Below are positions 3-24,688 of a stretch of 25,027 nt of DNA, piece after piece; position 1 is the stretch's first letter; each line of letters opens with the position of its first letter. The notes below the pieces were generated by a model, which worked only from the letters and a program-made list of their open reading frames with translations, was not told the origin of the DNA and did no database searches. A program made the translations under genes and the position numbers. The DNA is from a virus, in the IMG/VR virus record IMGVR_UViG_3300048091_000383, positions 1 through 25,027 of that record; one strand, 5' to 3'.

Positions 3-323
3 GCGGTACGGCGGCGTCTGTCCGGTACGCTGTCCGAATTGAATGCACTGCGGGAGCGCTATCCGGACTATATGTTGCCGATCCCGGCCCAGGGGGGGCC
101 GGGGTACTCGTGCTTAGACGTTGAACAAGAAGTAGCCTCAAGAACTCGCTCTGCAGCCCAACATCACTTATTTTTACCTTATTTGTACCCGGTTTCATAC
201 CCGGTTCCAAAATTCTGTAGCGATGTCGACAACCCGCCTATTCACTACGGAAGATGTCCACTTTCGTCTCTAAACATTTTCGAAGCGAAAGGTCGTTTGC
301 CCCGATCTCGAACCAGCCGCTAG
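3..323 (+). CDS. possible 3' end of an unrecognised flanking gene (partial)
   Basis: An open frame enters from the left edge (frame starting at base 3) and runs to a stop at about 323. Its first 30 or so codons look protein-like, with a charged helix followed by RYPDYMLPIPAQ. The later part is low-complexity in character and overlaps the 3' end of brxL by 86 bases in convergent orientation. I recognise no family. The true gene may lie mostly outside the window and be fused to unrelated sequence at an island junction, or the frame may be spurious. It is recorded because nothing else occupies 1-237. Confidence 0.2.
   Translation, partial: AVRRRLSGTLSELNALRERYPDYMLPIPAQGGPGYSCLDVEQEVASRTRSAAQHHLFLPYLYPVSYPVPKFCSDVDNPPIHYGRCPLSSLNIFEAKGRLPRSRTSR
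186..206. repeat. short direct repeat downstream of brxL
   Basis: TACCCGGTT occurs twice (186-194 and 198-206), separated by 3 bases, about 30 bases past the brxL stop. It is not an inverted repeat, so it is not a hairpin terminator. I see no convincing Rho-independent terminator between 85 and 237. Confidence 0.5.
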
Positions 324-2328
324 GCTTTTGATAGAAATCGAGGCCACGCCCAATCTTGATGATCCAGCCGTTGTCGAGGCGAACCTCACGGTCATGGATG
401 TTCGGGTTGAGCTTCACTTCTAACTCGACATCCAATTCCAAGAGACTCTGCTTGAGCTCGTCGAGCTTCTCGGCAATATCAACCAACTGGGTCTTGTCGT
501 CGTATCCAGTGATCAGACTGATCTTCTTAACCGTTCCTGCCTTTAAAACCGTTTCACAGAAGCGAACGAAGTTCTGAATTTGATGTTGCAACCGGATGTA
601 CGGGTCTTCGATCACGACTGACTTCGCCCCGCGCAAGTAGGGGCCGAGGATGGACTCATAGCTGTACCCGGTATCGCCATAAAGGATAGTAAAGTGCTGT
701 TCTTTAAGCTCTACCGATGACAACGTAACCTCTGCTGCTGGCGTAGCAATCGGTGCTTGGGCGGTTGCGGGTTTCGCTACAGGCGACTCCGGCAGCGCTT
801 CGACTGCAGCGCAGAGTTGGCCATCAGCCCTATTCAAACGACGACGAGCCGGCTCTTGCGTCGCAGACACGTCCTTCGATTCTGGGCAGAAGACCACCAC
901 CTCTTCACCGCTGGCATTGAAGTAGGAGAGATTAATCTTCGCGAATTCGTCATCCGGCTTGCGCTTGTTCATCTGCTCCTTGACTCGACGACGACATTCC
1001 GTCGCGAAGGCAACGTATTCCTCAAACTCGTCGTCAGAGGGCGGTCCATGCGGGTGAAGTATCTTCAAGAAGGCGCAAACGGTCTTTTTAATCCCCTTTT
1101 CGTCGCGCCCTTCGATAGCCTTGCCGAGCCGGATGCGCTTATTAACTTCCTCGTAACGATTCGTATGCTTGAACTGATAGTGGAAGGCCTCTGCCAAGTA
1201 ATCGGTGATAAAACCGTAGTTGCTGGTCAAGAACTCGCTACTGTTTTTTGGCATTTCCCAGCCTGGAATATACGCTGCAAAGCGATCCATGACCGCCAAG
1301 TCCAACTCGAGCGGAAGCGGTTGGAAAAGGTCATGCTCGTTAGAATTCACAACCTGTTGCACCGACACGTCAATGTTCCCAACAAAGCTCAGGCTTGCAT
1401 CGGCAATGACTTCGGCCCCACGTGAAAAGCGTCCGTTGGCCATAAAGTCCTTCATGATTTGGATGGTATCCGGGTCTTTAACTTTGATGCCGCCCACCTC
1501 GTCAAAAGCCACTGTGTCCCAAAATCCGACCAGCCCCACTTTTCGGCGTGCGTTGTTGTAGAACAGCGTTGCCTTGGTCGCTTGCCCCCCCGAAATCAAG
1601 GTGGCGTAGGGAGAGAACTCGCTGAAAAAATAGGACTTGCCGGTGCCGCGTGGCCCTAGCTCGATGTAGTTGTAGTTGGGTTCGACCAACGCAGCCAACC
1701 TGGCGATGAAGTGCATCTGCACGCGCTTCGAGAGCTTACTAGGCTCCAGACCAACGGAACGCAACACCGCCGCGAGCCATTCATCACGCGTAAACGCCGC
1801 ACGCCCTTCTGTATATCGCTCGAAGTCAAAGCGAGTCAGCTGGATGGGGCGCAGGTCCTCAATCGAGAACGCGTAATCATCCTCATCAATGTCGTTGTGC
1901 GCCAAGGTGACTTCTGCCCAAATGCCGCCTTCCAGCAAGCGATCATTGTCCCGGTAGAATTTCTCGCCAATGGCAATGCGCTGCGAGTTGAAGTTCTCCA
2001 GCGAGGCCCAGTGGCGCTTTTCCTTTTCAACATAGCGAACATGAACCTTATCGATGAAGCGGTGCTTGCCCTTCGTGGCCACCCTGGACTGAGCCGCATT
2101 GGCTTCATCTGGCCGAACGTAGTTTTCCTGCAGCGACGAGAGCACAGCTTCCATGCCAGCGTCCATCTCTGCCTGGTCATTGCTAGCGCAATATTTGGCG
2201 AGCAGAAACTCCAGAACGAACGTCGGGACGTTGGTGCCTTTCTTGATTCGATGCAGCAGGTCCTTGCGGAGCACCTTACCGTCGAATGTGGAGTTTAGCT
2301 TTTGGTCGAGTTCGTCCATAGGGCTCAT
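238..2328 (-). CDS. brxL: BrxL-type AAA+ protein with MIT_C/PLD-like C-terminus
   Basis: This is the last gene of the BREX operon, 696 aa. BrxL proteins are ring-forming AAA+ DNA-binding motors needed for phage restriction in type 1 systems. Visible features are an N-terminal helical/OB-like region, Walker A GPRGTGKS at about 225-232, Walker B VAFDEV at about 273-278, and a sensor-like segment FVGNID at about 315-320. A Pro/Ala-rich linker (about 480-540) follows. The C-terminal 154 residues do not look like the Lon-type protease domain usual for BrxL. Instead they resemble the MITD1 C-terminal phospholipase-D-like domain, with IHDREVR at about 644-650 followed by NGW and KIGRGLDFY. The start codon overlaps the pglZ stop by 4 nt. 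The gene appears less GC-rich than pglZ, which hints at a separate origin. The AAA+/BrxL call is firm; the C-terminal domain assignment is from pattern memory. Confidence 0.88.
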   Translation of the reverse strand: MSPMDELDQKLNSTFDGKVLRKDLLHRIKKGTNVPTFVLEFLLAKYCASNDQAEMDAGMEAVLSSLQENYVRPDEANAAQSRVATKGKHRFIDKVHVRYVEKEKRHWASLENFNSQRIAIGEKFYRDNDRLLEGGIWAEVTLAHNDIDEDDYAFSIEDLRPIQLTRFDFERYTEGRAAFTRDEWLAAVLRSVGLEPSKLSKRVQMHFIARLAALVEPNYNYIELGPRGTGKSYFFSEFSPYATLISGGQATKATLFYNNARRKVGLVGFWDTVAFDEVGGIKVKDPDTIQIMKDFMANGRFSRGAEVIADASLSFVGNIDVSVQQVVNSNEHDLFQPLPLELDLAVMDRFAAYIPGWEMPKNSSEFLTSNYGFITDYLAEAFHYQFKHTNRYEEVNKRIRLGKAIEGRDEKGIKKTVCAFLKILHPHGPPSDDEFEEYVAFATECRRRVKEQMNKRKPDDEFAKINLSYFNASGEEVVVFCPESKDVSATQEPARRRLNRADGQLCAAVEALPESPVAKPATAQAPIATPAAEVTLSSVELKEQHFTILYGDTGYSYESILGPYLRGAKSVVIEDPYIRLQHQIQNFVRFCETVLKAGTVKKISLITGYDDKTQLVDIAEKLDELKQSLLELDVELEVKLNPNIHDREVRLDNGWIIKIGRGLDFYQKPSGWFEIGANDLSLRKCLETKVDIFRSE

Positions 2329-4853
2329 TCCGTATAGTCGGTTTCAAGCGCCAGATTGCTGTAGGCGGCCAGGGTTGTGGGGTTCAGCGTTTTGACCGAG
2401 AACTTGCCTCTGAACTCATCATCCATTCGCAGCGCAATCTGTTTGCGCTTGCCTGGCATCAGGGTCACGGTTCTGGTCGCGGGGTTCACATCGCCGCCTG
2501 GGCGCGGCTCTCCTACCACATTGCCCTTGCTGTCCTGTGCTTCCACCAATATCTCCACGCTCAGATCTTGTGAGAACATGTCGTCGGCCACCAGTATCAC
2601 TTCGATGACCGGCAATCGCGTAGTTATTCGTTTGGCTCCGTTCTTGTAACTCAGATCCACCACTACCTTGCGCAATTCCGCATGGGAAGCGGTATCCAGC
2701 CGGGCCACCAGCACCGGCACAACGGCCTCCGCCAGGGACGCCCCGCCGTGGAAATACACGTGCCCTGAGCGATAGGGAGCCATGCTGCGAGGTAGCGCCA
2801 CTTGTGTGAAATCACCGCGAATGCCGACCTTTTCTGCGCCGACAACCAGGCTATGTGCGTCGGCTGTGCCGTCGCCTAGCATCATGCGGTCGTGGGCATT
2901 CACCAGCCATTTCCCTTGCGGTTTCACGCACACATCGCCGGCCTCCGCATGAGCATTGAGGAAGAAGCCATGGTCGGTGACGATTACCGCCTCTTTGAAG
3001 CCCATGCCACGCAGCTTATGTAGCGCGACTCGGATCAGCTTGAGCGTGCCGGGGATCAGGCCTAGCGTTGTCTCGGGGTTGCTTTCAAGTTGGCTGTCGA
3101 TTTCCGTGGAGCGTAGCACCAGCAGATCGACGGTGTCTGCGATCTTCGGATTGCCGCGTACAAAATCGTTGAGCGGCATTTCCGCGAAGCGATCGCCATA
3201 CCGCTTGGACAGCACATTCATACGCTGCGGGACGTTGCTTACTGGAGTACCCGCCAACTTCGGTACCAGTGAATCGCTCTCCAGTGACAGTGTCAGCCCC
3301 GTGCGTGCACCAGGGAGCAAACTCGCCATACCTACCAGGGTGATGGTCGGCAGCTGCGCATAGGCTGCTTGCAGCTCCACCGGCCCATCCTCCGCCAGCA
3401 GTTTTTCGAGCGCCACGCCCAGCTCATAGCGCAGGGCGTCCACCATCAGGTATGCGACCTTGCGCCCGCTTTCCTTGAGGCGATCTGCCACCAGGCGATC
3501 AAAGGTATCGGAGTTGGCCAATCGCCCAGTCGGCGGCCACCCCGTAGTCTCAACGTGCTTCACGAACACGCCCTGGACCTTTTCGGCCAAACGCCGATAG
3601 CGGGCCCGAGCCTGGCCAATCACCTCATGCATCAAGCCATGTGGGTCGAGGAAGTCGCCCGCCGCTTGCTCAAACTCGCGCTGCAAGCGATCTGCCTCGC
3701 GTAGGCTGCCCAGGTAGAAGTCGATCAGCTCCGCTTGCGAGCGGGCGTGATCCGGGAGCTGGCGCTCAAAATCGTCGCAAGCCTCAACTAGGCTCAAGCC
3801 AGACCGCACCAACTCCCACTGGGCCTGGCTTTCGCCCTTGCCGAGCCATACCGAGCTCTTATGGCGAGTCAGCACATGGCGAGTGGCATCGGTGTCGCCG
3901 CTGACAATTCCCTTGATCGCTGTGCGCAGGAAGGTTCGCTCCTCGAAGGGGAAGGTGTCGCGCTCGCCCAGGTCTTCAATCGCACCACAAAGATCGGTCA
4001 GATTGAGTTCCGCCTCGGTGGTCTCAGCGCGCTCGATGTATATCGCGCGTGACTTCGGATCGCTGCGCAGCCGGTCGCACACATCCTCGACGATCGGTCT
4101 GGCTTCCATCGGTGCGTGTGGCACACCCTTCAGGGTGTCCGGCAGCGCCACTGGCAGATCAAATACAAACTCACTGAACAGCACGTAACGCCACAGTTCA
4201 TCCGCCAGGGCAGACCAGGTCTTGCTGCGCGTCTTTACGCTCAGACCCAAGGTAGCGCGGAGGAAGTCATGCGCCTCTTGTACCCAGCCTTCCTGCCCCT
4301 TGAGAGCTTCGGATTGGCTTATACTGGGGGCCAGTAGTGCAGCCAGAATCTCGCGGCCGGACTCAACCCGCAGAGTGGCTCGTAACTGGGGCCAGCTCAC
4401 ACCGCCGCCAATGGCATCGATCACTGCATAGGTCGGCCCAGAGTGAGATGCGGCAAACACCTGCCGAATCTCGGTCGCGTGATCCGGCCTGGCGCGCAGA
4501 CATAGGCTCAGATACTCGTCGCCATCATCTTGCGGGAACACCGCGCCGCATTCTGCGTACAGGGCGAATGGATCAGCTTGCTTCTGCTCGTCGGTTTCCG
4601 GGCGCTTGGCGGGCACATAGATCAACACCCCTTCCAACGGTGCCTTGGGCTGCCCCACCTCGCGCAGTGCCTGCAGCGCCGCCTCACGGCTTTCGATGCT
4701 GCTTTCAGACGCATCGACCACTCGCACCTTGTCGGTGGCCAGATCGAAACACTGCTCGCGGTAGCGCTTGTCGGCGTCATACACCACCAAGGCGCCAGCT
4801 TGTTTCAGGCGCGGTCGCAGCACGCTTTCTCGAATGAATTCCGCAATCGTCAT
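2325..4853 (-). CDS. pglZ: BREX PglZ alkaline-phosphatase-superfamily protein
   Basis: 842 aa. PglZ is a core BREX protein of the alkaline phosphatase superfamily. Published work shows metal-dependent nuclease or phosphodiesterase activity for some members. The PglZ domain is recognisable from VAYLMVDALRYEL (about 467-478, metal-binding Asp), LPTITLVGMASLLPG (about 501-515), IVTDHGFFL (about 624-632) and HGGASLAEAVVP (about 702-713, conserved His). The N-terminal 400 residues are a helical BREX-type region, and the last 120 look like a beta-sandwich. The start ATG overlaps the stop of the upstream GmrSD-like gene by 4 nt, and its own stop overlaps the brxL start by 4 nt, so translation is probably coupled. 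All expected metal-site motifs look intact. Confidence 0.93.
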   Translation of the reverse strand: MTIAEFIRESVLRPRLKQAGALVVYDADKRYREQCFDLATDKVRVVDASESSIESREAALQALREVGQPKAPLEGVLIYVPAKRPETDEQKQADPFALYAECGAVFPQDDGDEYLSLCLRARPDHATEIRQVFAASHSGPTYAVIDAIGGGVSWPQLRATLRVESGREILAALLAPSISQSEALKGQEGWVQEAHDFLRATLGLSVKTRSKTWSALADELWRYVLFSEFVFDLPVALPDTLKGVPHAPMEARPIVEDVCDRLRSDPKSRAIYIERAETTEAELNLTDLCGAIEDLGERDTFPFEERTFLRTAIKGIVSGDTDATRHVLTRHKSSVWLGKGESQAQWELVRSGLSLVEACDDFERQLPDHARSQAELIDFYLGSLREADRLQREFEQAAGDFLDPHGLMHEVIGQARARYRRLAEKVQGVFVKHVETTGWPPTGRLANSDTFDRLVADRLKESGRKVAYLMVDALRYELGVALEKLLAEDGPVELQAAYAQLPTITLVGMASLLPGARTGLTLSLESDSLVPKLAGTPVSNVPQRMNVLSKRYGDRFAEMPLNDFVRGNPKIADTVDLLVLRSTEIDSQLESNPETTLGLIPGTLKLIRVALHKLRGMGFKEAVIVTDHGFFLNAHAEAGDVCVKPQGKWLVNAHDRMMLGDGTADAHSLVVGAEKVGIRGDFTQVALPRSMAPYRSGHVYFHGGASLAEAVVPVLVARLDTASHAELRKVVVDLSYKNGAKRITTRLPVIEVILVADDMFSQDLSVEILVEAQDSKGNVVGEPRPGGDVNPATRTVTLMPGKRKQIALRMDDEFRGKFSVKTLNPTTLAAYSNLALETDYTE

Positions 4854-6658
4854 TTGTCACCCCGCAGGCTCAGGATGGACATCACCTCCTTGAGCATCTT
4901 GTCTGTTCTCGCCGTAATGGCGGCCTCGTTCCAATCATCCTGGCTAGCCAAGTCGGCATTCAGGTACAAACCGTTGCGATAGCCAATGAAATCGCCCTGA
5001 TCGTTCTTGCGATCCCGCTTCTTCAAGAACTCCATTGTGCCGAGCTTCGAGTTGTAGCCACTCAGAGTCAGGTTGCCGAGCTGGTGAGCACAGCGCTCGC
5101 GAATGGCAGCCGCAGTACCTTTATGAGCCCCTTCGAGCATCGTCACCCAGCCCGGTCCTAAGTTCTCGGTCTTCGGTAGGATGTGTTCAACGGTAAATAC
5201 GGGGCGGTCATTGGCGTCATGTGCCCACAGGTCGCGTTTGTTTTCCCGGGTTTGGTGTGTCTCTTCCAGCTTGCAGAGCATGAACCGCGTGGCCTCGTAA
5301 TTCTCGAGGTACACGTCGCCCTTGAGGCGCGACTCACAAACCTCTTGCGGGGTTGCTCGTGCCAGCAACCAATCACTGGTTTGCTGGATGAAGCCGTCCA
5401 GCGTCGTGATCTCGCCACTGCGAATCTGCGTCAGCAAGTGGCTCACCAGCTCCATGAACATCGGGTCGAGTTCGCGGGTGGGCGGCATATCGGTGAGGTT
5501 GCGCCAGAAGAACCACTTGGTGAGCAAGGCGGCCAAGCGGCTCAATGCGTCACCCTCAGTCCACTTCTGGCTCTGCGCTACCTGGCTGCCCCACAGCAAG
5601 AATGCATAAGCCGGCGCGGCCCCCAAGCGCTGGAGGTCCTGCAAGGCGACTGCGGCGGCGTCTCCCCATTCCTCTTTTGCCATGGTGGGGTTGAGCAGCG
5701 CCGAGTAGGTTTTGCCCTTGGCCTGCAGCGCGCCGAACAGCCACACCGGGCGCTTGCGCAGCAGGGTGTCGTAGATGGTGATCAGGTTCGAGCGCGTGGC
5801 GCGGGTGCAGCCTTTTACCTCCACCCGCTTGAGGTACTTGAACATGTTGTACAGCTGGCGCAGAAAGCGCTCCTGCACCGCCGAGTCGGGCAACAGGTCG
5901 ATCAGGTCTTTCCATTCGTCAAATGCCCGGTCGATGCCATAGTCGGGGCACTTGTCCAATTCGGCCAGCAAATTGTTCTTGATGATGTCGATGGCCGAGA
6001 GCGGGATCCCCCGGTTGTTGATTGACTCGAACAACATGAAGGCATCGGAATGGCTGCGCACCTCGATCTTGACCAACATGGCGGTTTTGAGCTTCTCCAG
6101 CAGGGCCAGTGCGCTGTCCTGGCTCAGCCCATCAAGTCGCTCGCAGAAGTAGCGGTAAGCGCGCGCAATGCGGCGGTTGCCGAAGTTGCTCAAGCCCTTC
6201 GGCGCTTTTACCTGTTTGGGGAACAGATCACTCAGCACCTTTTGGAAATCGGTCTTGTTCTGTGCTTGCTCGCTGGGTTCCAGACGCCACTGACCAGAGG
6301 TGCGGACGAAAATGCGGCTTTCCAGGTTGTCCAGCTCCACCAGCAGGCGGCGATCAGGATTCAGAATGGCATTCAGCTTGTCGTAGAACGCACAGAACAA
6401 CAGGCTGATGGTGGTAAACCGCTGTTGGCCGTCGATCAACTCTAGTCGGCTACCGGCCATGCCATCTTGCTGGGTGTTCACGCAAATGATGGAACCTAAG
6501 AAGTGCCCGCTGGGCGACTCCTCCAGGTCATTGAACAGCGCATCCCAGTTCTTGCTGCCCCATACATATTCGCGCTGGTACTTGGGAATGAAGAATGACG
6601 TTGTCCCATCGGGGCTGAAGTAGAAGCTGACCGGCAACGCTTTGACGTCCTGAATCAT
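4850..6658 (-). CDS. GmrSD-like (DUF262/DUF1524) type IV restriction nuclease
   Basis: 602 aa single-chain protein. GmrSD/BrxU-family enzymes hydrolyse NTPs and cut phage DNA carrying modified (e.g. glucosylated) cytosines. The DUF262 (GmrS-like) part shows IPKYQREYVW at about 24-33 and IDGQQRFTT at about 75-83. DGQQR is the nucleotide-hydrolysis signature. The DUF1524 (GmrD-like HNH) part shows EHILPK at about 491-496, GNLTLSGYN at about 528-536, and a conserved W near 578. The gene lies inside the BREX operon between pglX and pglZ, with 4-nt overlaps at both ends, so it is made together with the BREX proteins. This resembles the BREX-plus-BrxU pairing known from some enterobacterial plasmids, where BrxU covers phages BREX cannot stop. 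The family call is firm; substrate specificity is inferred. Confidence 0.88.
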   Translation of the reverse strand: MIQDVKALPVSFYFSPDGTTSFFIPKYQREYVWGSKNWDALFNDLEESPSGHFLGSIICVNTQQDGMAGSRLELIDGQQRFTTISLLFCAFYDKLNAILNPDRRLLVELDNLESRIFVRTSGQWRLEPSEQAQNKTDFQKVLSDLFPKQVKAPKGLSNFGNRRIARAYRYFCERLDGLSQDSALALLEKLKTAMLVKIEVRSHSDAFMLFESINNRGIPLSAIDIIKNNLLAELDKCPDYGIDRAFDEWKDLIDLLPDSAVQERFLRQLYNMFKYLKRVEVKGCTRATRSNLITIYDTLLRKRPVWLFGALQAKGKTYSALLNPTMAKEEWGDAAAVALQDLQRLGAAPAYAFLLWGSQVAQSQKWTEGDALSRLAALLTKWFFWRNLTDMPPTRELDPMFMELVSHLLTQIRSGEITTLDGFIQQTSDWLLARATPQEVCESRLKGDVYLENYEATRFMLCKLEETHQTRENKRDLWAHDANDRPVFTVEHILPKTENLGPGWVTMLEGAHKGTAAAIRERCAHQLGNLTLSGYNSKLGTMEFLKKRDRKNDQGDFIGYRNGLYLNADLASQDDWNEAAITARTDKMLKEVMSILSLRGDK

Positions 6659-8577
6659 TCATCGCCTCCGGTCTTCTTCCGACCACGCGTCTTCTTCGGC
6701 GCTGACTCAGGCTCGATGTATAAATCCTCCAGACTATGGGCGATGGCGAGCGACTTGTCCGTCTTGCACTTTTCACGCACACGTTCGGGCCAGTAATTCA
6801 TGGCCAGGTGCGCCCAGTCGTAGTCGCCTTTTTCCACCTTGGCCCAGGTGTCTTTGAGCATCTTTTGCCATGGCTTGTGACGGAACAACGGCCACAGCGG
6901 TGCGGCGCTGATCTGTACGCCGTCGTCATGGATTGGCTTGTAGGTCGGTGCGAGCTTGAGCAGAATGTCGCGCAGCTCGATCAGCTCCAGCTCAAAGGCT
7001 TGCAGGGCTTCGAACTGTTTTTCATCGTCGCGAGTGCGGGCAGAACCTTTGTTGCGCAGCACGGTCACGTCCGTGCCGACTTGTTTGAGCTTGGGCTCGA
7101 CGAAGTCGTTGATGGCGGTATAGAGCGTCTGGCTGCTGAGGGTGGGGTAATAGACCCACAGCGTGTAACTACCAGAAGTGGTGCTCAGCGGCCAGTAGAT
7201 GGGTGCTTTGCGGCGGCTCTTGGAGTAGCGCTGCAGATGGAAGGGGAAAAATTCTCGCTGTAACCAGTGGCGAACATCCTCCGGCACTGGCACCTCAACG
7301 CGAACTAGCACTTCCTCCACTAAACGCGCGAGGTCATGCGGGTGCCCTTGCTCGTCTACCAGGATGCCAACGTGGGAGTGAAATGACTCATCACCATCCG
7401 GTAACATGCCAGGACTTTTGGCTGGTAATGGGTCGAAGGGCTCTGGCTCGGGCGGTGCCGCGCGCTCGCCGGTGGCCAGGCGCCAGTCGAAGCGACCAAA
7501 GGCTACACCGACAGACCACGAAAGTAACGCTGATTGTCTGTCGGCAGGTACCTGCTCTTCTTCCTCATCCTCGGCATCTTCTTGATCTGTGGCGCCGTCC
7601 TCAGTGGCTACTGTCTGAGTGACGGTGGCACGATCAGTGCTGGAGAATCCATAGATGTCAAAGGCTACATCGTCGATCTCGGCCTGAATCTTTGTGAGGT
7701 CGGTTTCGATGGCTTCGGGCGCGAACTCGCCCGTACGGCCACGTAAGATGGCTGGCAGCAAAAAGGAATGCGATGTTTCTTCGATGGTGTTGAGCGTGCG
7801 CTTAAGCGACCAGGCTTTAAGAACCAGAGACGTTAGACGATCAGACTTATCCCGTTCGACACTTGGGATTGGCATCCGCTGGAGCGCACCGCCGGCAAAT
7901 TCTGGGTGGCCAAATCGCCCGAGCAAAAGCTTAAAAATGAAATCAGCGCACGAACTGCTGAGCAACCCAATCAACCAAAGCAGGTCTTCATCGGGAGAAA
8001 AACCGCCACAGCCTCTTTTGCTAAATGCACATCCCGCAGGCAACACCGATGGAGCGAAGTGCGACGCTCGAAGCGGCCACGTAAATCCAGGACGAAAGTA
8101 GAACTCGGTGGCATTGATCATGGCCGTCCATTGATCACCCCAGCCATGGGACGAACGATATGCGGACGCGAAAGCTTTCAGTTCAACCCCGTCATTTGTC
8201 CAAAGTACGACGAAAGGCAAGTCGGAATAGAAGGACGATGGTGAACCGCCCTTGGCCAACGGCACCCATTCCGAATTTGACAAGGCTTCTGGGGTGGCTA
8301 TCTCCCAGAAGAGTCGCAAGAATCGCGCATCATCATTCGTCGCCAATCCCGCTTTTGCCGTTCTGTCATGTCGCTCAAACGCAGGATGGTTTGAGAACAG
8401 GTCTCTGAGTTGGTCGCCAACCCAATATGCAAACGGCGCCCCGGGTACCGCGCGGAAAGAGTCAGGTCGCGCATCAAAAACTCTTGATTCGCTTTGTCCG
8501 GCTCTCACAGCGGCGCAGGTAGCCAGGAGCGCAGTTGATTTTTCCTTTTCGGCGAGCAATCGCAAGAAAGTAGTCAT
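6655..8577 (-). CDS. pglX: PglX C-terminal half: target-recognition and tail domains
   Basis: 640 aa. It corresponds to the C-terminal half of a normal (about 1200 aa) PglX methyltransferase. The order is FLRLL and KAGLATNDDARFLRLFWE (about 74-91), which continue the usual PglX sequence just after the catalytic core. A recognition-domain-like region (about 100-245) comes next, then an acidic linker (about 330-342), and then the conserved PglX tail RYSKSRRKAPIYWPLS (about 450-465) and its continuation to about 477. It has no SAM-binding or NPPF motif and so cannot methylate alone. It presumably pairs with the product of the preceding ORF to recognise the BREX site. The start ATG overlaps the stop of that ORF (ATGA). 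There is no homopolymer or simple repeat at the junction. By eye the recognition region is more AT-rich than the flanks, as expected for swapped specificity modules. Confidence 0.85.
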   Translation of the reverse strand: MTTFLRLLAEKEKSTALLATCAAVRAGQSESRVFDARPDSFRAVPGAPFAYWVGDQLRDLFSNHPAFERHDRTAKAGLATNDDARFLRLFWEIATPEALSNSEWVPLAKGGSPSSFYSDLPFVVLWTNDGVELKAFASAYRSSHGWGDQWTAMINATEFYFRPGFTWPLRASHFAPSVLPAGCAFSKRGCGGFSPDEDLLWLIGLLSSSCADFIFKLLLGRFGHPEFAGGALQRMPIPSVERDKSDRLTSLVLKAWSLKRTLNTIEETSHSFLLPAILRGRTGEFAPEAIETDLTKIQAEIDDVAFDIYGFSSTDRATVTQTVATEDGATDQEDAEDEEEEQVPADRQSALLSWSVGVAFGRFDWRLATGERAAPPEPEPFDPLPAKSPGMLPDGDESFHSHVGILVDEQGHPHDLARLVEEVLVRVEVPVPEDVRHWLQREFFPFHLQRYSKSRRKAPIYWPLSTTSGSYTLWVYYPTLSSQTLYTAINDFVEPKLKQVGTDVTVLRNKGSARTRDDEKQFEALQAFELELIELRDILLKLAPTYKPIHDDGVQISAAPLWPLFRHKPWQKMLKDTWAKVEKGDYDWAHLAMNYWPERVREKCKTDKSLAIAHSLEDLYIEPESAPKKTRGRKKTGGDE

Positions 8578-10466: not shown

Positions 10467-10476
10467 CAATCAATTC

Positions 10477-13197
10477 CTATTGTTCTGTGCCTGCTTGCTG
10501 TGAACCAGGCGCTTGCCAATCCTGGCCAAAGTGAGCGCGCAGGCTCTCGATGGCGGGCGGCAAAGCGCCGTCGCAGGTCACACCCAGGTAAGTGGCCGCA
10601 CGGGTGGTGCCCACGTACAGGTATTTGTCGAAGAGCGCTGGGTGCAATGCGGCGAGCTGGTCAATTCCGACGAAGAACACCGCTTCGAACTCCAGGCCCT
10701 TGATGTGCTGGATGTCGAAGACGCGCACATTGCTTTCCTGGCCCACCGCCTGACCCTCGCGGCAGGCAATGACCTGGATGTTGTGCTCGGACAGGACTGC
10801 GTTTAGTGCCTCAGCAACCGGTACCACGTCGTCTTCAGTATTCACAAAGATGGCGGTGGACGGCAGCTGACCGACGAAACGCTCGATCTCTCGGATGCGG
10901 TCTGCCAACCAACTCACCACGATTGCTGTGTCTGTGGCGTGCTCCAGGAGCGCGGGCGCTACGCCGCCACTATCCACGTGTGCGGGCAAGCTGACGTTCT
11001 GCTCGGTGCCGCCGACGGCGCGGATCATGGCGCGAGCCAGATCGTTCAGTTGCTTGCTCTGCCGATAGGAGACGGAGATCTCCTGGATGTCGAAGTCGGC
11101 AAAGACCCACTTCATTTCATCGGCGGACCGCGCACCCCAGGTGGTCAGGCGCTGGTTGAAGTCGCCGCAGGCAAAGAATGAGCGCAGCCGTGGATGCGCC
11201 AGGGCGGCCATACAGGCCAGCTGGATAGGCGAAAAGTCGGTGGCTTCATCCACCAAGACCTGGTTGCGGTAGTGCCCCAGGATGGGCTGGAGTGCCGACC
11301 AAGCGGGGCTGTCGATATCTCGCTGCACGTTGGGCCGGCTGATCAGGTCGCCTGCGGCGCGCAGGATGGCGAGCAGCACAATGTCCAGTTCGAGCGGATG
11401 GATATCGCGGGCTTCGAAGCCTTCGTTGCGATACCAGCTCCCGGCTTGCTGGCGTTCGCGCCGGAACGCACGGTAGCGCTTGGGAATGCCGTCGAGATAA
11501 CGCTTGACCGGGTTCACGAAGCGGCGCGCGTTGGTCTGCACGAGCAGACTCGCACCCACTTCGGCGCGGTCGGCTTCTGTCAGGCCACGCTCTGCCAGCC
11601 ACTCAATGATTTTTCCGTTGCGTGATGACTTGCTGACCGCGCGCTTTGATGCTGCCGCACGGGCTTGGGCTCGCACCGCTTGCATGTAGGCGTTGAGAGC
11701 AGCGGCACGACCGGTGCGTGGTGCCGTGGTGTCTTCTTCCTCGTCAGCATCGAGTTCGTCTTGTTCATCTGCATCGGTGGCCTGGACTTGCTGCAGACCA
11801 TCAATGAAGCGCGCCAACTCATCTAGAAATGCCCGGTGGCGGTTGAGCTGGAGGTTGAGTGCGGCTTTGATCTTTCCGTCAGAGGCTTCTTTCAGGCTGG
11901 CAACGAGTGCCTGTACTTTCGGGAGCTCGGCTGCCAAGGACCCGAAGGTGGAAGCCAACGCGCCATCGCCCGCTTGCGTCAGAATGCTGTGCAGCCGATC
12001 GCCCAAGCGCTGGACATCTGGCGCCTTGCCTTCGCGGAGCATGTTGGCCGCTTCATGCAGCTCTTGCACGTAGAGATTGCGCTGCCATGTGTTGAAATCG
12101 TCGAACCAATGAATCGGGCGATCCAGCGCCTCACCACTCAGATTTGGCAGGCTGTCTTTCAGTACAAAGATGCCACCACCCGATGCGGTTCTAAGAACGC
12201 CGAAAGCGTTTCTGGCCAGTTCGCGCCGGTAGTCCTGCCAGGTTCTAATGCGCAGATCGGAGGCGGGAACGCCTTCACGCGCAAAAGCCTCCTTAAGGTA
12301 CTGCTTGAGCAATTCGGTGGGCGTGAACATTAGCCAGCTGTTGGCGTGCGAGACGCCCTGGGTGGTTGCCACCGTCTCAATCAGACGTTGTTCGCCTTCG
12401 TCCAGAAAGGCAGTGTCGAGCTTCTGGCCGAGACGACGAATCAAGGTTGTCGTCTTACCCGTGCCGGGCGGACCAAGAATCAGCAAGCGCTTGTCGAGGG
12501 GAAGGCGAAAAATCTCATCCTGGTATTGGTCCAGAACGGGCTGATCGCGCAGCCCCATCTTGGTGATGACGCTTCGGCGCACGCCGTCGATGATGTTGGC
12601 CTTGACGGTTTCTTCGGCCAGTAATTGACCCAGGAGGTCTTCGGTGACTTCTTCTCCGGCAACCTCAATCAGTAGCGCTCGCAACGACTCGATAGTGAGT
12701 GGGCCGAAATGCTCAGCTTCCACCACGGTGTCGCGCGAATCCCAGCCATCGGCCAGAGCGGCGGGGCGGAGTTGAGCGCGCTCCAAGACCTCGACAACGG
12801 TGCCATTGGGCAGGGCGAATTCAGCCCCGATTGCCAAAGAGGCCAGACGACCAACCGGGGCACGGTAACTGGCCAGATTCTGAAAACCCGAAACCGGCGT
12901 GGTTCGACAGATGTAATAGGTGCGCTCGTCGCCTTCCTCATCCACAACAACGACACGGGCGATCGCAGGCTCGGCTGCCAATACCTGATAGCTCTCTCGG
13001 TTCGCCTGGCTGATCCGATCCAGTTTCTGGATGGCCGAGCTAGACGTCATCGTATTGACGCTCGCCAAGGCATCGGAGCCCAGCTTTCGACCATCGTGCA
13101 GGTTGCGTTTTGCAGCCGTAGAGATGCTGTCGAGCTGGGTGAGCGCCTCGCCTGCGACCTGCTCGATGTGTTGCCTGGATCTGGTAGTCAGTTCCAT
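10477..13197 (-). CDS. SF1 (UvrD/HelD-like) helicase with N-terminal Gre-like domain
   Basis: 906 aa. A superfamily 1 ATP-dependent helicase/translocase: Walker A GPPGTGKTT (about 242-250), VLVDEATDFSP (about 647-657, motif II), GDFNQRL (about 678-684, motif III), SYRQSKQL (about 710-717, motif IV) and YVGTTRAATYLGV near 861-873 (motif VI). A long insertion, including an acidic stretch at about 476-489, separates the first motifs. Residues about 80-143 resemble the C-terminal domain of GreA/GreB transcript-cleavage factors (DEEGDERTYYI, then APVGRLASL, then LPNGTVVEVLE). They follow a helical N-terminus of about 75 residues. It sits between brxC (2 nt away) and pglX (10 nt away), so it belongs to the BREX operon, but it is not one of the named BREX helicases (BrxHI/BrxHII). 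The domain layout suggests contact with RNA polymerase, which is only an inference. Confidence 0.85.
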   Translation of the reverse strand: MELTTRSRQHIEQVAGEALTQLDSISTAAKRNLHDGRKLGSDALASVNTMTSSSAIQKLDRISQANRESYQVLAAEPAIARVVVVDEEGDERTYYICRTTPVSGFQNLASYRAPVGRLASLAIGAEFALPNGTVVEVLERAQLRPAALADGWDSRDTVVEAEHFGPLTIESLRALLIEVAGEEVTEDLLGQLLAEETVKANIIDGVRRSVITKMGLRDQPVLDQYQDEIFRLPLDKRLLILGPPGTGKTTTLIRRLGQKLDTAFLDEGEQRLIETVATTQGVSHANSWLMFTPTELLKQYLKEAFAREGVPASDLRIRTWQDYRRELARNAFGVLRTASGGGIFVLKDSLPNLSGEALDRPIHWFDDFNTWQRNLYVQELHEAANMLREGKAPDVQRLGDRLHSILTQAGDGALASTFGSLAAELPKVQALVASLKEASDGKIKAALNLQLNRHRAFLDELARFIDGLQQVQATDADEQDELDADEEEDTTAPRTGRAAALNAYMQAVRAQARAAASKRAVSKSSRNGKIIEWLAERGLTEADRAEVGASLLVQTNARRFVNPVKRYLDGIPKRYRAFRRERQQAGSWYRNEGFEARDIHPLELDIVLLAILRAAGDLISRPNVQRDIDSPAWSALQPILGHYRNQVLVDEATDFSPIQLACMAALAHPRLRSFFACGDFNQRLTTWGARSADEMKWVFADFDIQEISVSYRQSKQLNDLARAMIRAVGGTEQNVSLPAHVDSGGVAPALLEHATDTAIVVSWLADRIREIERFVGQLPSTAIFVNTEDDVVPVAEALNAVLSEHNIQVIACREGQAVGQESNVRVFDIQHIKGLEFEAVFFVGIDQLAALHPALFDKYLYVGTTRAATYLGVTCDGALPPAIESLRAHFGQDWQAPGSQQAGTEQ

Positions 13198-13199
13198 GC

Positions 13200-16841: not shown

Positions 16842-16869
16842 AGGTCTATTTCAGGGTTCTTTTGTCTGT

Positions 16870-17445
16870 TCAGCCGCCGACGTGGACGGAGCGGTAATTG
16901 CCGTCTTCCGGGTAGAAGCCGAGAAACTTCAGGCGCGTCTTGCCAGTTCGCACGCCGGGGTACAGAAAAACCGTCGGCACATGAAACTTGCCCTGGAGCT
17001 GGCTTTCGATGGCGCCGATCCGCACAAACGGGTGCAGTGCCTCAAGGTCCGTTACCAACAGCAGCGCGTTCTGTTGACCTTCGAGCGGCTGTAGGGCATC
17101 CTCTAGCCGCTTCAGTAGTCCGTTATCAGCGGTCAGGATGTCCGCCAGCGCCTTGTTGGTACGCGGCCAATCCAGTGGCGCCGACTTGTCTTCCATTACG
17201 CACAGGGACCAGAACGGGTCGTCTTTGAGCAGCGCCCAGATCTGTTCGGCGATGGAGAACGTGTGCACATCCCAGCCTTCCTGACGAAGCTTGGCTACCC
17301 ACGCGGGCGTCTGCCGTTTCACCTCGAGGATTTGTTCTGGGGCGAAGACCAGGTAGTAGATCGGCTCGAAGCTCGCATGGCCAAGCTCGCGCCCGTGCCG
17401 AATGCGCTCGCGCAACTCGTCAAAATCAGCTTTGAGTGAGGACAT
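16870..17445 (-). CDS. brxB: BREX protein BrxB (DUF1788)
   Basis: 191 aa, the normal length for BrxB, a small core BREX protein required for defence in several type 1 systems. Family signatures are PIYYLVFAPEQILEVKRQ (about 28-45), a middle block with DDPFW, and the highly conserved C-terminus with FLYPG, KTRLKFLGFYPEDGNYRS and the final HVGG. The start overlaps the brxA stop by 20 nt, implying coupled translation. I see no catalytic motif. Assigned by DUF1788 family resemblance and position between brxA and brxC. Confidence 0.93.
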   Translation of the reverse strand: MSSLKADFDELRERIRHGRELGHASFEPIYYLVFAPEQILEVKRQTPAWVAKLRQEGWDVHTFSIAEQIWALLKDDPFWSLCVMEDKSAPLDWPRTNKALADILTADNGLLKRLEDALQPLEGQQNALLLVTDLEALHPFVRIGAIESQLQGKFHVPTVFLYPGVRTGKTRLKFLGFYPEDGNYRSVHVGG

Positions 17446-18214
17446 CGCAGAGCGTCTCCATATTTTGTAGTTTCCAGCTAATTCGAATCACGTCACCCGC
17501 CGCTTGGAGGATGAGTAGTCCCTGCAGCGAAAGCCGCTTGATCTCTTCTAGCACGTCCTCACGGGCCAGACCAAACAGCTGCCAGTCTTCGTGTGCCAGC
17601 AGAGCATTGTCGCCAACACCAGAAAAATGGAGCTCGTAGGCTAGATAAGCAACGGCTGACGGCGATATACGGAACGGCAGAATGCGGCGACTTGAACGCA
17701 GTCCCTGCTCTAGCATTCCATAGTCGGCGCAGCATCCAGTCAGATAGCCAGAGACACGCCGCATCGTCGTTTCGGACCAGCGTTTACTAGTCTTGCCGTC
17801 GTCGATACTACGTTCAACAAAAGCTCGAGCATCAGCATTAGTAAGCTGGGTATATCCACCTGCATACCGCGCCCAATAAACCTGCCGAACGAAGTCGCCG
17901 AAGATTGGATTTGCTCGACTCGTAAACACGAGCATGAGCTGTGTAAGGTCAGCCGTTGGAATTGTCCCGGCCAGCCGCTTAAGGTGTGTTGCTGGCGCGC
18001 CCGCTGCTATCAAATATCGAGGAGCGAAGCACTCAACAACGATATTACGGAGTCGGCGTGCAGTGACATTCGGAAATCGCCCCGATTCCAAAGCGACCTG
18101 GTGCAATTGGTTCGCTGACATGCCGGGCGACCACAGGTCGAGCAGTGTCTTAGTCTCGTTGACGAGTCCGAGGCCTGCCTGCAACTGGGTTGTGTAGAAC
18201 TTCTTATCAGCCAC
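17426..18214 (-). CDS. brxA: BREX protein BrxA (DUF1819)
   Basis: 262 aa, somewhat longer than the usual 200 or so. BrxA is a small DNA-binding helical protein (NusB-like fold in published structures). DUF1819 hallmarks are present: ARRLRNIVVECFAPRYL near 52-68, a block around FGDFVRQVYWARYAG, and KRWSETTMRRVSGYLTGCCADYGML near 143-167. The start codon is GTG at 18214, 2 nt after the brxE stop, with GGATAG just upstream as a possible ribosome site. Base composition is a little more AT-rich than brxB/brxC. Confidence 0.88.
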   Translation of the reverse strand: MADKKFYTTQLQAGLGLVNETKTLLDLWSPGMSANQLHQVALESGRFPNVTARRLRNIVVECFAPRYLIAAGAPATHLKRLAGTIPTADLTQLMLVFTSRANPIFGDFVRQVYWARYAGGYTQLTNADARAFVERSIDDGKTSKRWSETTMRRVSGYLTGCCADYGMLEQGLRSSRRILPFRISPSAVAYLAYELHFSGVGDNALLAHEDWQLFGLAREDVLEEIKRLSLQGLLILQAAGDVIRISWKLQNMETLCDVLTQS

Positions 18215-18216
18215 AG

Positions 18217-18714
18217 CTATCCAACGAGATAAGGATAAGTTTGACAGTTCTGCGAGAAAGCTGATGAATAAGCACCAGCTATGGCACGCAAAATATCAAC
18301 AGATTGAATATCTTTAATACTTCCAATAGCCATTGGGCCGACGTTAAACGTCAGGCCAGTGACCACAAGTTTATCCAAAGCGCCGAGTGCCTCGTCTATA
18401 TTCTTTGGTACCTGGTTAGTAAACTCACCACTGCTTTGTTGCACAAGCAGATGAAGATCCTGTTCGACCTCTTCTGGCAGACGGAACAAATGGTAGCTAC
18501 CAACACTTAAGTGCTCATCGTGAAGACGACGTGCTGCCTCTAGCACACCGTGATACTGAGCCAGGGAAGTGGTTTTGGAAAAAACCGGCTCCAAGAAGAG
18601 ACGACTCGACGCCTCATAAAAAGCTGTTGGCCACCAAGCAAAGTTTGCGCGTTCGCCTAGATACCCAATCAGGACGCGCAATTGTAGAAGTGTTGAAAGG
18701 TATGATTCCGTCAT
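18217..18714 (-). CDS. brxE: BrxE-like small BREX protein
   Basis: 165 aa. The order of motifs (LLQLRVLIGYLGE, then WWPTAFY, then FLEP and AQYHGVLEAARRLHDEH) matches my memory of BrxE, the first gene of type 6 BREX loci, whose molecular role is unknown. It lies 2 nt before brxA. No enzymatic motif, signal peptide or membrane segment is visible. The gene is clearly more AT-rich than the core of the operon. If it is not BrxE it is at least a BREX-associated small protein, judging by the tight linkage. The BrxE name needs a profile search. Confidence 0.65.
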   Translation of the reverse strand: MTESYLSTLLQLRVLIGYLGERANFAWWPTAFYEASSRLFLEPVFSKTTSLAQYHGVLEAARRLHDEHLSVGSYHLFRLPEEVEQDLHLLVQQSSGEFTNQVPKNIDEALGALDKLVVTGLTFNVGPMAIGSIKDIQSVDILRAIAGAYSSAFSQNCQTYPYLVG

Positions 18715-18760
18715 CTCATCTTATCCAGTAACTATTGCTTCATCGGCATCCGCACACCTG

Positions 18761-18958
18761 TCAATTTTCGTCGGCGGATTTGCTTTCGTCAGCTGCACCG
18801 GACTTTACCCATGCATCAACATCCATACGCTGGAACTTCCAGAAGCGCCCCACCCGATGAGCCGGCATCTCTTTTTTCGAGATCCATGCGTACACACTGT
18901 CTTTGCTAACCCCGAGATGTTCAGCAATCTCCTCAACTGACAACCAACGGTCTGACAT
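18761..18958 (-). CDS. excisionase/MerR-type HTH regulator (helix-turn-helix 17)
   Basis: 65 aa. A compact winged HTH of the excisionase/AlpA type: WLSVEEIAEHLGVSKDSVYAWISKKEMPAHRVGRFWKFQRMDVDAWV covers nearly the whole protein, with a short acidic tail. GAGG lies 8 nt upstream of the ATG. It is the first gene of the BREX operon, 46 nt before brxE, so it is a good candidate for the operon's regulator. It differs from the WYL-type BrxR regulator of many type 1 loci. It could instead be a remnant excisionase of the island, but no integrase is present in the window. Confidence 0.85.
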   Translation of the reverse strand: MSDRWLSVEEIAEHLGVSKDSVYAWISKKEMPAHRVGRFWKFQRMDVDAWVKSGAADESKSADEN

Positions 18959-19235: not shown

Positions 19236-19252
19236 CACCCCTTTCAAGGTCT
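19236..19252 (+). repeat. IS left terminal inverted repeat
   Basis: CACCCCTTTCAAGGTCT, perfectly complementary to the right end at 20696-20712. Confidence 0.95.
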
Positions 19253-20632: not shown

Positions 20633-20640
20633 GGCTTACT

Positions 20641-20677
20641 CCCGAACATGTCTGAAAAATACATTAGACATGTCGGG
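20641..20677. promoter_or_regulatory. inverted repeat upstream of the transposase start
   Basis: ACATGTCT (20646-20653) pairs with AGACATGT (20666-20673), extended by CCCG/CGGG outside one unpaired base. It lies 9-45 nt before the transposase ATG. It could form a hairpin that limits transposase translation from transcripts entering from outside, as known for IS10/IS50, or it could be an operator. Confidence 0.5.
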
Positions 20678-20695
20678 CTCGGGTTAATGCCCGAT

Positions 20696-20712
20696 AGACC
20701 TTGAAAGGGGTG
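20696..20712 (-). repeat. IS right terminal inverted repeat
   Basis: Complement of the 17-bp left end; perfect match. Confidence 0.95.
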
Positions 20713-20897: not shown

Positions 20898-21385
20898 ATG
20901 GCAGCGGACTACTACCTACAGCTCGACGGCATCAAGGGCGAATCGACCGACAGCAAGCACCAAGGCTGGATCGAGTGCACGATGGTGCACTGGGAGATCA
21001 AGCAGCCCAAGAGCGCGACTGCATCGACTGGCGGTGGCCACACCGCCGAGCGTGCTGAACTCAGCGAGATCAGCATCAGCAAGCTGGTGGACCTGGCGTC
21101 CCCGCTGCTGGCGCAGACATGCGCTTGCGGGAAAACGATCCCGAAAGCAAAACTCGAAATGCTGCGCGCAGATGGCAACGGCGAGCCGATCAAGTATTTC
21201 GAGGTCGAGCTAGAGAACGTGCTGATCGGGCACTGGCGCCCAGCTTCGGTGGCGATTTCCCGACCGAGACCTTGGGACTCAAGTTCTCCAAGATCCGGTG
21301 GAAGTACACCCAGCAGAAGATCGTAGGCGGTAGCGCTGGCAACACGGCCGGCGGCTGGGACCTGGCGACGAACAGGATCGCATGA
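20898..21385 (+). pseudogene. hcp: type VI secretion tube protein Hcp, frameshifted
   Basis: Hcp forms the hexameric inner tube of the type VI secretion system and carries small effectors in its lumen. The start MAADYYLQLDGIKGES is supported by CGGAGG just upstream. The frame is good to about codon 112 (ELENVLIG). It then shifts: the expected continuation LAPSFGGDFPTETLGLKFSKIRWKYTQQK and the Hcp-type ending GGWDLATNRIA are in the next frame, ending at 21385. Restoring one G in the GGG at about 21228-21230 would give an intact 162-aa Hcp. As read, the product would end at 21326 with a wrong C-terminus. The cause is a true mutation or a sequencing error in a short G run. Confidence 0.88.
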
Positions 21386-22438: not shown

Positions 22439-22473
22439 TGCGATCCGCGCCTCGTTACCCTGCGCGGATCGCA
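22439..22473. terminator. strong hairpin between convergent genes
   Basis: TGCGATCCGCG (22439-22449) and CGCGGATCGCA (22463-22473) form a perfect 11-bp stem with a 13-nt loop, at the 3' end of the phage helicase gene and facing the end of the immunity-like gene. No T-run follows, so it is a hairpin that may stop or stabilise both transcripts rather than a classical Rho-independent terminator. Confidence 0.45.
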
Positions 22474-24530: not shown

Positions 24531-24532
24531 GA

Positions 24533-24688
24533 TTAGAACCCGCACTCGCGTGCGATGGCACGCATCGCAGCCTCGTATTCCGTCGGCGTGGCACCCGGGT
24601 TAGCCTTCACCCAGGCAGCCTTTTTCGCTTCATACATTGCGAAGTCGGGCTCCTGGACCTCGGCGTTGCACTGAAATTGTTCGAACAT
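24533..24688 (-). CDS. small phage protein, 51 aa
   Basis: ATG at 24688 is chosen because GGAGGGG lies just upstream; the longer open frame to 24802 starts inside the AlpA-like gene. The product (MFEQFQCNAEVQEPDF and onward) has a short helix-rich core, AMYEAKKAAWVKANPGATPTEYEAAMRAIARECGF in two parts. It is common in phage early regions; no function is known to me. It lies 11 nt after the AlpA-like gene and 2 nt before the O-like gene. Confidence 0.65.
   Translation of the reverse strand: MFEQFQCNAEVQEPDFAMYEAKKAAWVKANPGATPTEYEAAMRAIARECGF

What the first reader, a model, noticed from the sequence alone, without database searches (positions are those of the whole stretch)
238..18958. BREX locus with a gene set outside the standard subtypes
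Seen: one minus-strand operon of HTH, BrxE-like, BrxA, BrxB, BrxC, SF1 helicase, split PglX, GmrSD-like nuclease, PglZ, BrxL. Known: type 1 BREX is BrxA-B-C-PglX-PglZ-BrxL, and type 6 has BrxE with BrxD/BrxHI instead of BrxL. Inference: this is a mosaic of types 1 and 6, or an undescribed subtype, with its own helicase and a built-in type IV-like nuclease.
Basis: partly seen in the sequence, partly recalled or inferred. Interest (0 to 1): 0.8.

Follow-up and report, generated by a model that had tools for sequence, protein, structure and literature searches.

The report
Phage-borne BREX with split methyltransferase
This is an intact bacterial anti-phage BREX operon of a distinct lineage that keeps two parts (BrxE and BrxL) usually assigned to different BREX types, splits its DNA-marking enzyme into separate "marking" and "target-reading" proteins, and carries exchangeable extra weapons.

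Summary
The locus is a true BREX, but not an ordinary type 1 and not a recent type 1/type 6 mosaic. In BrxC and PglZ trees all BrxE-bearing rows lie on one side of a 100/100 branch, apart from the type 1 references (six for BrxC, seven for PglZ). Inside, a bacterial BrxE+BrxL clade (window, beta/gammaproteobacteria, Thioflavicoccus, Hymenobacter) is sister to type 6. The BREX with this helicase recurs in 16 of 80 genome loci found with the helicase. BrxE+BrxL without it occurs on plasmids of Halobacteria and Bacteroidota.

Two further points. (1) The PglX split is a conserved architecture: 13 of 21 loci, 12 with overlapping stop and start, cut near the methyltransferase/specificity hinge; one locus has two tandem specificity genes. 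(2) The helicase and the GmrSD nuclease are cargo. The helicase (UvrD core, HelD-like arm) also sits in type III RM and DISARM/Druantia-like operons and has moved between systems. GmrSD has the BrxU precedent. Function is inferred; nothing was assayed.

The parts
18761..18958 (-). 65-aa HTH_17 (excisionase-type) regulator, first gene of the operon
   Evidence: PF12728 63.6 bits; 94% identical gene in Herbaspirillum L031. L021, the one other upstream regulator tested, is a WYL protein.
18217..18714 (-). BrxE family protein, 165 aa, function unknown
   Evidence: NF033447 154.2 bits (cut-off 40); below BREX-6 BrxE NF033448, 29.8 bits (cut-off 80). Model pLDDT 72, no usable PDB fold match.
17426..18214 (-). 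BrxA, long form (262 aa)
   Evidence: PF08849 85.8 bits; PDLC02445 over 2-262. The six type 1 references have 183-210 aa, the 26 other rows 260-289 aa.
16870..17445 (-). BrxB, 191 aa
   Evidence: PF08747 39.6 bits; PDLC02465 382 bits
13200..16841 (-). BrxC AAA+ ATPase, 1213 aa
   Evidence: NF033441 854 bits (cut-off 400); PDLC02483 2179 bits; Walker A GFYGSGKS
10477..13197 (-). SF1 helicase, 906 aa, UvrD core with HelD-like N-terminal coiled coil and beta domain; cargo slot 1
   Evidence: PF13538/PF00580 over cut-off; HelD ranks first by profile and by Foldseek; UvrD first by VIA-align Z; 94 genome relatives found, 80 kept
8574..10466 (-). PglX N half: N6-adenine methyltransferase without target-recognition domain, 630 aa (start taken as the ATG one codon inside the listed TTG)
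   Evidence: PF07669 71.8 bits; aligns to PglX 8c45 residues 154-609
6655..8577 (-). PglX C half: target-recognition/specificity protein, 640 aa, ATGA overlap with the N half
   Evidence: PDLC02532 849 bits; aligns to 8c45 from residue 641; overlap
4850..6658 (-). GmrSD-family type IV-like endonuclease (BrxU-like), 602 aa; cargo slot 2
   Evidence: PF03235 132 bits, PF07510 65 bits, both over cut-off; DGQQR motif
2325..4853 (-). PglZ, 842 aa, nuclease effector of BREX
   Evidence: PDLC02561 1408 bits; below each of the six typed NCBIfam PglZ cut-offs it matched, BREX-6 closest (169.9 of 400)
238..2328 (-). BrxL, 696 aa, with C-terminal PLD/HKD-type domain
   Evidence: TIGR02688 475 bits (cut-off 329); PF16565 176 bits over 554-694; HDREVRLD at 645

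Best explanation
A complete, phage- or prophage-borne BREX operon of a distinct BrxE+BrxL lineage, sister to type 6. Shown by sequence: gene content, intact motifs, recurrent order, own deep clades, a conserved split of PglX near its domain hinge, and two cargo slots (BrxC-PglX and PglX-PglZ). Inferred: PglXN (methyltransferase) and PglXC (target recognition) form a two-subunit enzyme, like HsdM and HsdS of type I restriction-modification, that marks one adenine in an asymmetric host motif with help from BrxA/B/C/E. Unmarked phage DNA is then blocked by PglZ nuclease and BrxL, a ring ATPase with an HKD-type nuclease tail. The helicase is an exchangeable motor that clears or unwinds target DNA, possibly displacing RNA polymerase as HelD does. 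GmrSD cuts phage DNA with modified cytosines that BREX cannot read. The freed specificity gene lets the lineage swap or double its target motif.
For: Gene identities. This BREX with the helicase in 16 of 80 genome loci, 15 genomes, several cut by contig ends. BrxE in all 16 helicase- or PglZ-derived loci that hold a complete brxA. BrxL and no BrxD or BrxHI in the BrxE+BrxL loci that reach that far (weak generic BrxHI similarity in L114 only), against BrxD+BrxHI and no BrxL in 3 of 3 type 6 references. BrxC and PglZ trees 100/100 for type 1 against all BrxE rows, and 100/100 and 100/99 for type 6 with the bacterial BrxE+BrxL clade. Split in 13 of 21 PglX loci: 10 with 4-nt overlap, 2 with 1-nt, 1 interrupted by an insert. 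Junction maps between PglX residues 609 and 641 of 8c45, near the hinge at 654-659 (PMC11341690, passage). In the 9 split loci of the pair list against the window: N half 87-93%, target-recognition part 38-45%, rest 74-80% identical. Two tandem PglXC genes in L045 with 20-28% identity across residues 91-250 and 92% nucleotide identity over the last 580 nt.
Against: No function was assayed. BrxE has no fold match. Tree distances are large and the tool warns of long branches meeting; type 5 was not sampled; the root is assumed on type 1. In the BrxL tree the archaeal BrxE systems group with four Lon-type type 1 BrxL, not with the window, so BrxL itself may have been exchanged. PglX is fused in 8 of 21 loci of the same lineage, and the recognition part is just as variable among these, so the split is neither essential nor needed for motif change. 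The two tandem specificity genes rest on one metagenome bin.
Confidence: 0.72

Rival explanations
1. It is ordinary type 1 BREX with accessory genes: types 5 and 6 and this one are sub-branches of a broad type 1, and BrxE is just another accessory.
For: Gene set BrxA-B-C-PglX-PglZ-BrxL is complete. Both PglX halves score best with the BREX-1 PglX model (458 and 255 bits, cut-off 500 for the whole protein). PMC12839542 (sections 12, 17 and 19 and part 1 of 35 read, plus passages) groups types 5 and 6 with type 1.
Against: None of the type 1 references nests with the BrxE rows in BrxC or PglZ (100/100). PglZ scores 92 bits against the type A cut-off of 270. BrxA is long-form.
Confidence: 0.15
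2. It is a recent chimera: a type 1 operon that captured brxE from a type 6 system.
For: The published scheme puts BrxE in type 6 only and BrxL in types 1 and 4 (PMC12839542, passage and section 19). Identity varies along the operon: the window shares HTH, BrxE and BrxA at 90-94% with L031 but BrxE at 72% and BrxA at 87% with L021, although BrxC, helicase and PglZ are nearer L021, so genes do recombine within the lineage.
Against: The window BrxE scores 29.8 of 80 bits with the BREX-6 BrxE model, while three type 6 BrxE pass it. BrxC, PglZ, PglX and BrxL are all in their own deep clade. The combination spans Pseudomonadota, Bacteroidota and Halobacteria.
Confidence: 0.07
3. The PglX split is a broken or phase-off gene, as described for truncated pglX in other BREX loci.
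For: [quoted passage not shown] phase variation is called common in pglX (PMC11341690, passage). L041 carries an insert at the end of its N half.
Against: Same cut site with overlapping stop and start in 12 of 13 split loci and open frames on both sides. The split lies near the domain hinge. Tandem second specificity gene in L045.
Confidence: 0.1
4. The helicase and GmrSD are unrelated passengers of a defence island with no role in BREX.
For: Same BREX without the helicase in L101, L102, L104 and L105; helicase in many other contexts. The helicase tree needs 5 BREX/non-BREX changes, at least 2 forced by supported branches. BrxU gives protection on its own (PMC8565348, passages).
Against: In the 14 loci read on both sides the helicase always lies between brxC and pglX, and its two repeated partners outside BREX are also DNA-methylation systems.
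Confidence: 0.35

Closest known systems
BREX type 6 (BrxE-BrxA-BrxB-BrxC-PglX-PglZ-BrxD-BrxHI)
   Same: BrxE, long BrxA, sister position in BrxC and PglZ trees; PglZ closest to the BREX-6 model
   Different: BrxL instead of BrxD+BrxHI; BrxE and PglZ below the BREX-6 cut-offs; PglX split
BREX type 1 (BrxA-BrxB-BrxC-PglX-PglZ-BrxL), including the BrxL-HKD form
   Same: Same six core genes and order; BrxL with HKD-type tail, as reported for 1030 of 2913 type 1 taxa with BrxL (PMC12839542 section 19)
   Different: BrxE present; BrxC, PglZ, PglX and BrxL in other deep clades
Haloarchaeal plasmid BREX with BrxE and BrxL (L011, L113, L114, L115, L117)
   Same: BrxE-A-B-C-PglX-PglZ-BrxL order
   Different: PglX annotated as one gene; BrxL groups with Lon-type type 1 BrxL; deeper branch
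BrxU of pEFER (GmrSD type IV enzyme in BREX)
   Same: Single-chain GmrSD within a BREX operon (PMC8565348, passages)
   Different: BrxU lies between brxC and pglX, here between pglXC and pglZ; no sequence comparison of the two was reported as a hit
HelD, RNA polymerase recycling motor
   Same: Top profile and Foldseek match; of the 50 entries listed by VIA-align only the HelD ones align from the N-terminal coiled coil (model residues 7-11)
   Different: Far below HelD family cut-offs; UvrD scores higher by Z; RNA polymerase contact unknown
Type I restriction HsdM/HsdS
   Same: Separate methyltransferase and specificity genes, variable recognition part with conserved C-terminal part, one case of tandem specificity genes; the comparison with HsdS gene habits is recalled
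   Different: No HsdR; sequence or fold relation of PglXC to HsdS not tested here

Membership tests
BREX (any type) | BrxC and PglZ present | tested here: met
   NF033441 854 of 400 bits; PglZ domain PF08665 39 of 25 bits
BREX type 1 | BrxA, BrxB, BrxC, PglX, PglZ, BrxL | tested here: met
BREX type 1 | PglZ of type A or B above curated cut-off | tested here: not met
   TIGR02687 92.4 of 270; NF033450 59.6 of 400
BREX type 1 | BrxC and PglZ inside the type 1 clade | tested here: not met
   6 (BrxC) and 7 (PglZ) type 1 rows separated at 100/100 from all BrxE rows
BREX type 6 | BREX-6 BrxE above cut-off | tested here: not met
   NF033448 29.8 of 80 bits; general BrxE family 154.2 of 40 is met
BREX type 6 | BrxD and BrxHI present | tested here: not met
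   no tblastn match (E 1e-6) to two BrxD and two BrxHI queries in the window
BREX type 6 | BREX-6 PglZ above cut-off | tested here: not met
   NF033443 169.9 of 400 bits
BREX type 5 | clade membership with type 5 BrxC/PglZ | not tested
   no type 5 reference was fetched; the PglZ_5 model scored 36 of 250 bits
BrxL-HKD | HKD/PLD tail with HRD motif | tested here: met
   PF16565 176 of 25 bits; HDREVRLD at 645
GmrSD / BrxU | GmrSD_N and GmrSD_C domains | tested here: met
   132.2 of 33.2 and 65.2 of 23 bits
GmrSD / BrxU | cleavage of modified-cytosine DNA | not testable with these tools
   needs an enzyme assay
HelD | curated HelD family score | tested here: not met
   47.0 of 1100 and 46.5 of 1051 bits at best
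HelD | N-terminal coiled-coil arm plus UvrD-like core | tested here: inconclusive
   Foldseek E 1e-19; VIA Z 26.4, rmsd 8.8, 543 residues, model 7-891; UvrD Z 32.2, rmsd 4.3, 409 residues, 111-893
Type I specificity subunit (HsdS) | HsdS fold of PglXC | not tested

The most novel reading that the evidence does not exclude
A BREX lineage has moved to the type I restriction design: one methyltransferase subunit served by exchangeable, sometimes duplicated, specificity subunits, carried by phages together with a HelD-like motor that is traded between BREX, type III RM and DISARM/Druantia-like systems as a general helper of methylation-based defence, perhaps acting on transcribing RNA polymerase.
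Probability: 0.35. Interest if true: 0.8.

Novelty: new variant of a known kind. Interest (0 to 1): 0.62.

Why it matters
The latest BREX survey that I read in part restates that BrxE is exclusive to type 6 (PMC12839542, passage). Here BrxE marks a larger clade that includes BrxL-bearing systems in bacteria and archaea, with type 6 placed among them. That makes the order in which BrxL and BrxD/BrxHI replaced each other testable. A PglX naturally cut near its hinge gives a tool to separate BREX methylation from motif recognition: the authors of the PglX structure could not express the C-terminal domain alone (PMC11341690, passage). It also predicts strains with two BREX motifs from one methyltransferase. 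The shared helicase points to a step common to several modification-based systems.

Tried and rejected
Mosaic of types 1 and 6: rejected by clade structure. BrxE function from fold: pLDDT 72, best Foldseek E 2.6, nothing usable. PADLOC gave no family for BrxE. BrxE in 398 sampled Pseudomonadota genomes: one over the cut-off, which is the Dyella centre genome itself, and one weak hit below it, so this sampling supplied no further relatives. Paper searches (9 of 10 used): none of the listed titles, abstract starts or passages read describes BrxE with BrxL or this helicase in BREX. Several lists were capped (30 of 53, 15 of 66, 10 of 45), and the HelD search was weak because 'held' is an English word. 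Supplements could not be read, and the 2015 founding BREX paper was not read. VIA-align ranks UvrD above HelD and Foldseek the reverse, so I do not call the helicase a HelD. A clade of bacterial plus archaeal BrxE+BrxL rows without type 6 was rejected by AU test (PglZ p 0.023; BrxC p 0.0001), but I named the groups after seeing the trees.

Rows left out: 27 of 35 PglZ and 26 of 35 BrxC rows went into, 22 and 21 into the AU tests; L010 (frame-broken Hymenobacter) was in no tree; L022, L041 and L045 were left out of the PglX identity profile; 8 helicase translations with stops or X, and fragments under 880 aa, were left out of the 69 helicases kept, of which 59 plus the window were aligned. Of 10 plasmid records with the helicase I read 6 contexts. 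Helicase contexts are clusters within five frames on each side, and some contigs end sooner.
Full report
OBSERVATION. The window is a 25,027-base IMG/VR virus record. Genes 238-18958 form one minus-strand operon. Catalytic motifs are in place. PADLOC models match BrxA, B, C, PglZ and BrxL almost end to end at very high score, so members of this lineage were probably in PADLOC's training sets; that inference is mine.

WHERE IT BELONGS. By curated cut-offs it is neither type 1 nor type 6: PglZ reaches 92 of 270 (type 1A), 60 of 400 (1B) and 170 of 400 (type 6) bits, and BrxE reaches 30 of 80 for BREX-6 BrxE. Three type 6 references (Azospirillum, Aulosira, Pseudanabaena plasmids) pass the BREX-6 BrxE model, carry BrxD and BrxHI and lack BrxL. 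The window and its relatives are the reverse (L022, L045, L053 and L099 end before BrxL, and L114 shows a weak generic helicase similarity). Plasmid relatives with BrxE and BrxL are Thioflavicoccus, two Hymenobacter (one frame-broken) and five Halobacteria. In trees of PglZ (27 rows) and BrxC (26 rows) rooted on type 1, all BrxE rows lie on one side of a 100/100 branch, with Halobacteria outside and type 6 sister to the bacterial BrxE+BrxL clade (100/99 and 100/100). AU tests reject a BrxE+BrxL clade without type 6 (p 0.023 PglZ; p 0.0001 BrxC; groups named after seeing the trees). PglX gives four deep clades. BrxL gives a clade of its own for the bacterial group, while archaeal BrxL groups with four Lon-type type 1 BrxL, so whether BrxL was ancestral in the BrxE clade stays open. 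The tool warned of long branches; type 5 was not sampled.

RECURRENCE. A helicase-profile scan of genome contigs (84,980 species by the tool's description) found 94 relatives and kept 80. Sixteen of the 80, in 15 genomes, lie in this BREX: Dyella, Methylocaldum, Chitinilyticum, a Burkholderiales bin, Chitinasiproducens, Alcanivorax (two loci), Nitrosovibrio, a gammaproteobacterial bin, Herbaspirillum, Pseudoxanthomonas, Stutzerimonas, Comamonadaceae, Rhodoferax and Lysobacteraceae bins, and Thiodictyon. L022, L026, L045, L053 and L099 are cut by contig ends; 13 of the 16, and the viral L015, show both neighbours of the helicase slot. Because the query was the helicase, this says nothing about how often the BREX lacks it. 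A PglZ scan of virus records gave 5 loci: one with the helicase, four without. All 16 loci from these scans that hold a complete brxA carry brxE. BrxE is rare: among 398 sampled Pseudomonadota genomes only the Dyella centre genome passed the cut-off.

SPLIT PGLX. Of 21 PglX loci examined (window included) 13 are split and 8 fused (L022 is cut by the contig end beyond the junction). In 10 the halves overlap by 4 nt (nine ATGA; GTGA in L045), in two by 1 nt (TAATG), and in L041 an insert interrupts the end of the N half. The junction maps between residues 609 and 641 of the solved Salmonella PglX, close to the hinge at 654-659 that separates the methyltransferase domain from the recognition domain at 662-849 (PMC11341690, passages). 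Against the window, the 9 split loci in the pair list show 87-93% identity in the N half (residues 201-631), 38-45% in the recognition part and 74-80% in the rest; a tenth split locus, L102, fell below that list's threshold. The recognition part is at least as variable among the fused PglX, so variability alone does not need the split. A Comamonadaceae bin (L045) has one N half followed by two C halves in tandem (638 and 630 aa, overlapping stop and start), 20-28% identical over residues 91-250 but 92% identical in nucleotides over the last 580. This is the pattern I recall for type I specificity genes. I read it as a methyltransferase with separable, exchangeable specificity subunits; no assay or fold of PglXC was done. 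Literature passages describe two-piece or interrupted pglX as truncation (PMC9716671) and note phase variation (PMC11341690).

CARGO. Slot 1 (brxC-pglX) holds the helicase; in Herbaspirillum it is preceded by two TOTE-type genes. Slot 2 (pglX-pglZ) holds this GmrSD in 7 of 19 readable relatives (L021, L023, L024, L025, L028, L041, L102), another GmrSD_N protein in L031, an additional HEC-07-like protein in L021, and an AAA_21 ATPase in L030. Among 77 helicase loci outside this BREX (64 genome, 7 viral, 6 plasmid), 21 carry the type III restriction-enzyme cluster, and 6 carry a DISARM/Druantia-like cluster with a DrmMI-like methyltransferase (one representative of each cluster annotated). The rest are mixed, including one beside a cysteine desulfurase/PAPS-reductase operon. 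In a quick tree of 79 helicases (SH-aLRT only) BREX members are not one clade: 5 changes by parsimony, at least 2 forced by supported branches. The helicase model (pLDDT 83) matches HelD first in Foldseek (E 1e-19) and UvrD first by Z (32.2 against 26.4), but of the 50 entries listed only HelD aligns from the N-terminal coiled coil (model residues 7-11). A role in clearing RNA polymerase is a hypothesis only.

PHAGE SETTING. Beyond an IS-like transposase gene with 32-nt inverted ends (19236-20712) the window has a phage replication initiator and a DnaB-like helicase. Viral relatives L102, L103 and L104 have phage tail genes beside the BREX; the genes tested beside it in L101 and L105 gave no structural phage family. 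So this BREX appears to ride on phages or prophages more than once, as far as IMG/VR contigs show; I did not test the genome loci for this.

VERDICT. A new variant of BREX. The gene set is real and recurrent. The mosaic reading is not borne out; the subtype reading is sound in phylogeny, though naming is a matter of convention because PMC12839542 folds types 5 and 6 into a broad type 1. The split methyltransferase with a duplicated specificity gene is the most interesting part.

Noticed in passing
window 19236-20712: Transposase gene (DDE_Tnp_1) with 32-nt inverted ends (78% complementary) between the BREX operon and phage genes.
   Followed up: partly
window 22455-24545: DnaB-like replicative helicase and phage replication initiation protein, so the BREX is next to phage genes.
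   Followed up: partly
window 21382-21801 (+): Possible L,D-transpeptidase (YkuD, 78.5 bits) on the opposite strand.
   Followed up: no
L102, L103, L104: Viral relatives carry the same BREX beside phage tail genes.
   Followed up: partly
L002, L003, L029, L034, L040 and others: The helicase is embedded next to SNF2 and (where annotated) DUF4391 genes and a type III methyltransferase and restriction enzyme: a repeated extended type III RM operon; one paper search for DUF4391 listed one paper, unrelated by its title and abstract start.
   Followed up: partly
L008 12171-15024: Thioflavicoccus carries a different ATP-binding-domain gene plus a DUF2290 gene between the two PglX halves.
   Followed up: no
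L031 6463-9995: Herbaspirillum has a TOTE-conflict-type helicase and a DUF7017/TOTE S1 protein between brxC and the helicase.
   Followed up: no
window 16870-18958 against L031 and L021: The 5' part of the operon (HTH, BrxE, BrxA) is closest to Herbaspirillum, while BrxC, helicase and PglZ are closer to Dyella: recombination inside the lineage.
   Followed up: no
L010: The Hymenobacter sp. BRD67 copy of the BrxE+BrxL BREX is broken into many short frames.
   Followed up: no
L011 1-3273 and 9206-12904: Halobaculum has a second annotated pglX upstream of brxE besides the one in the operon.
   Followed up: no
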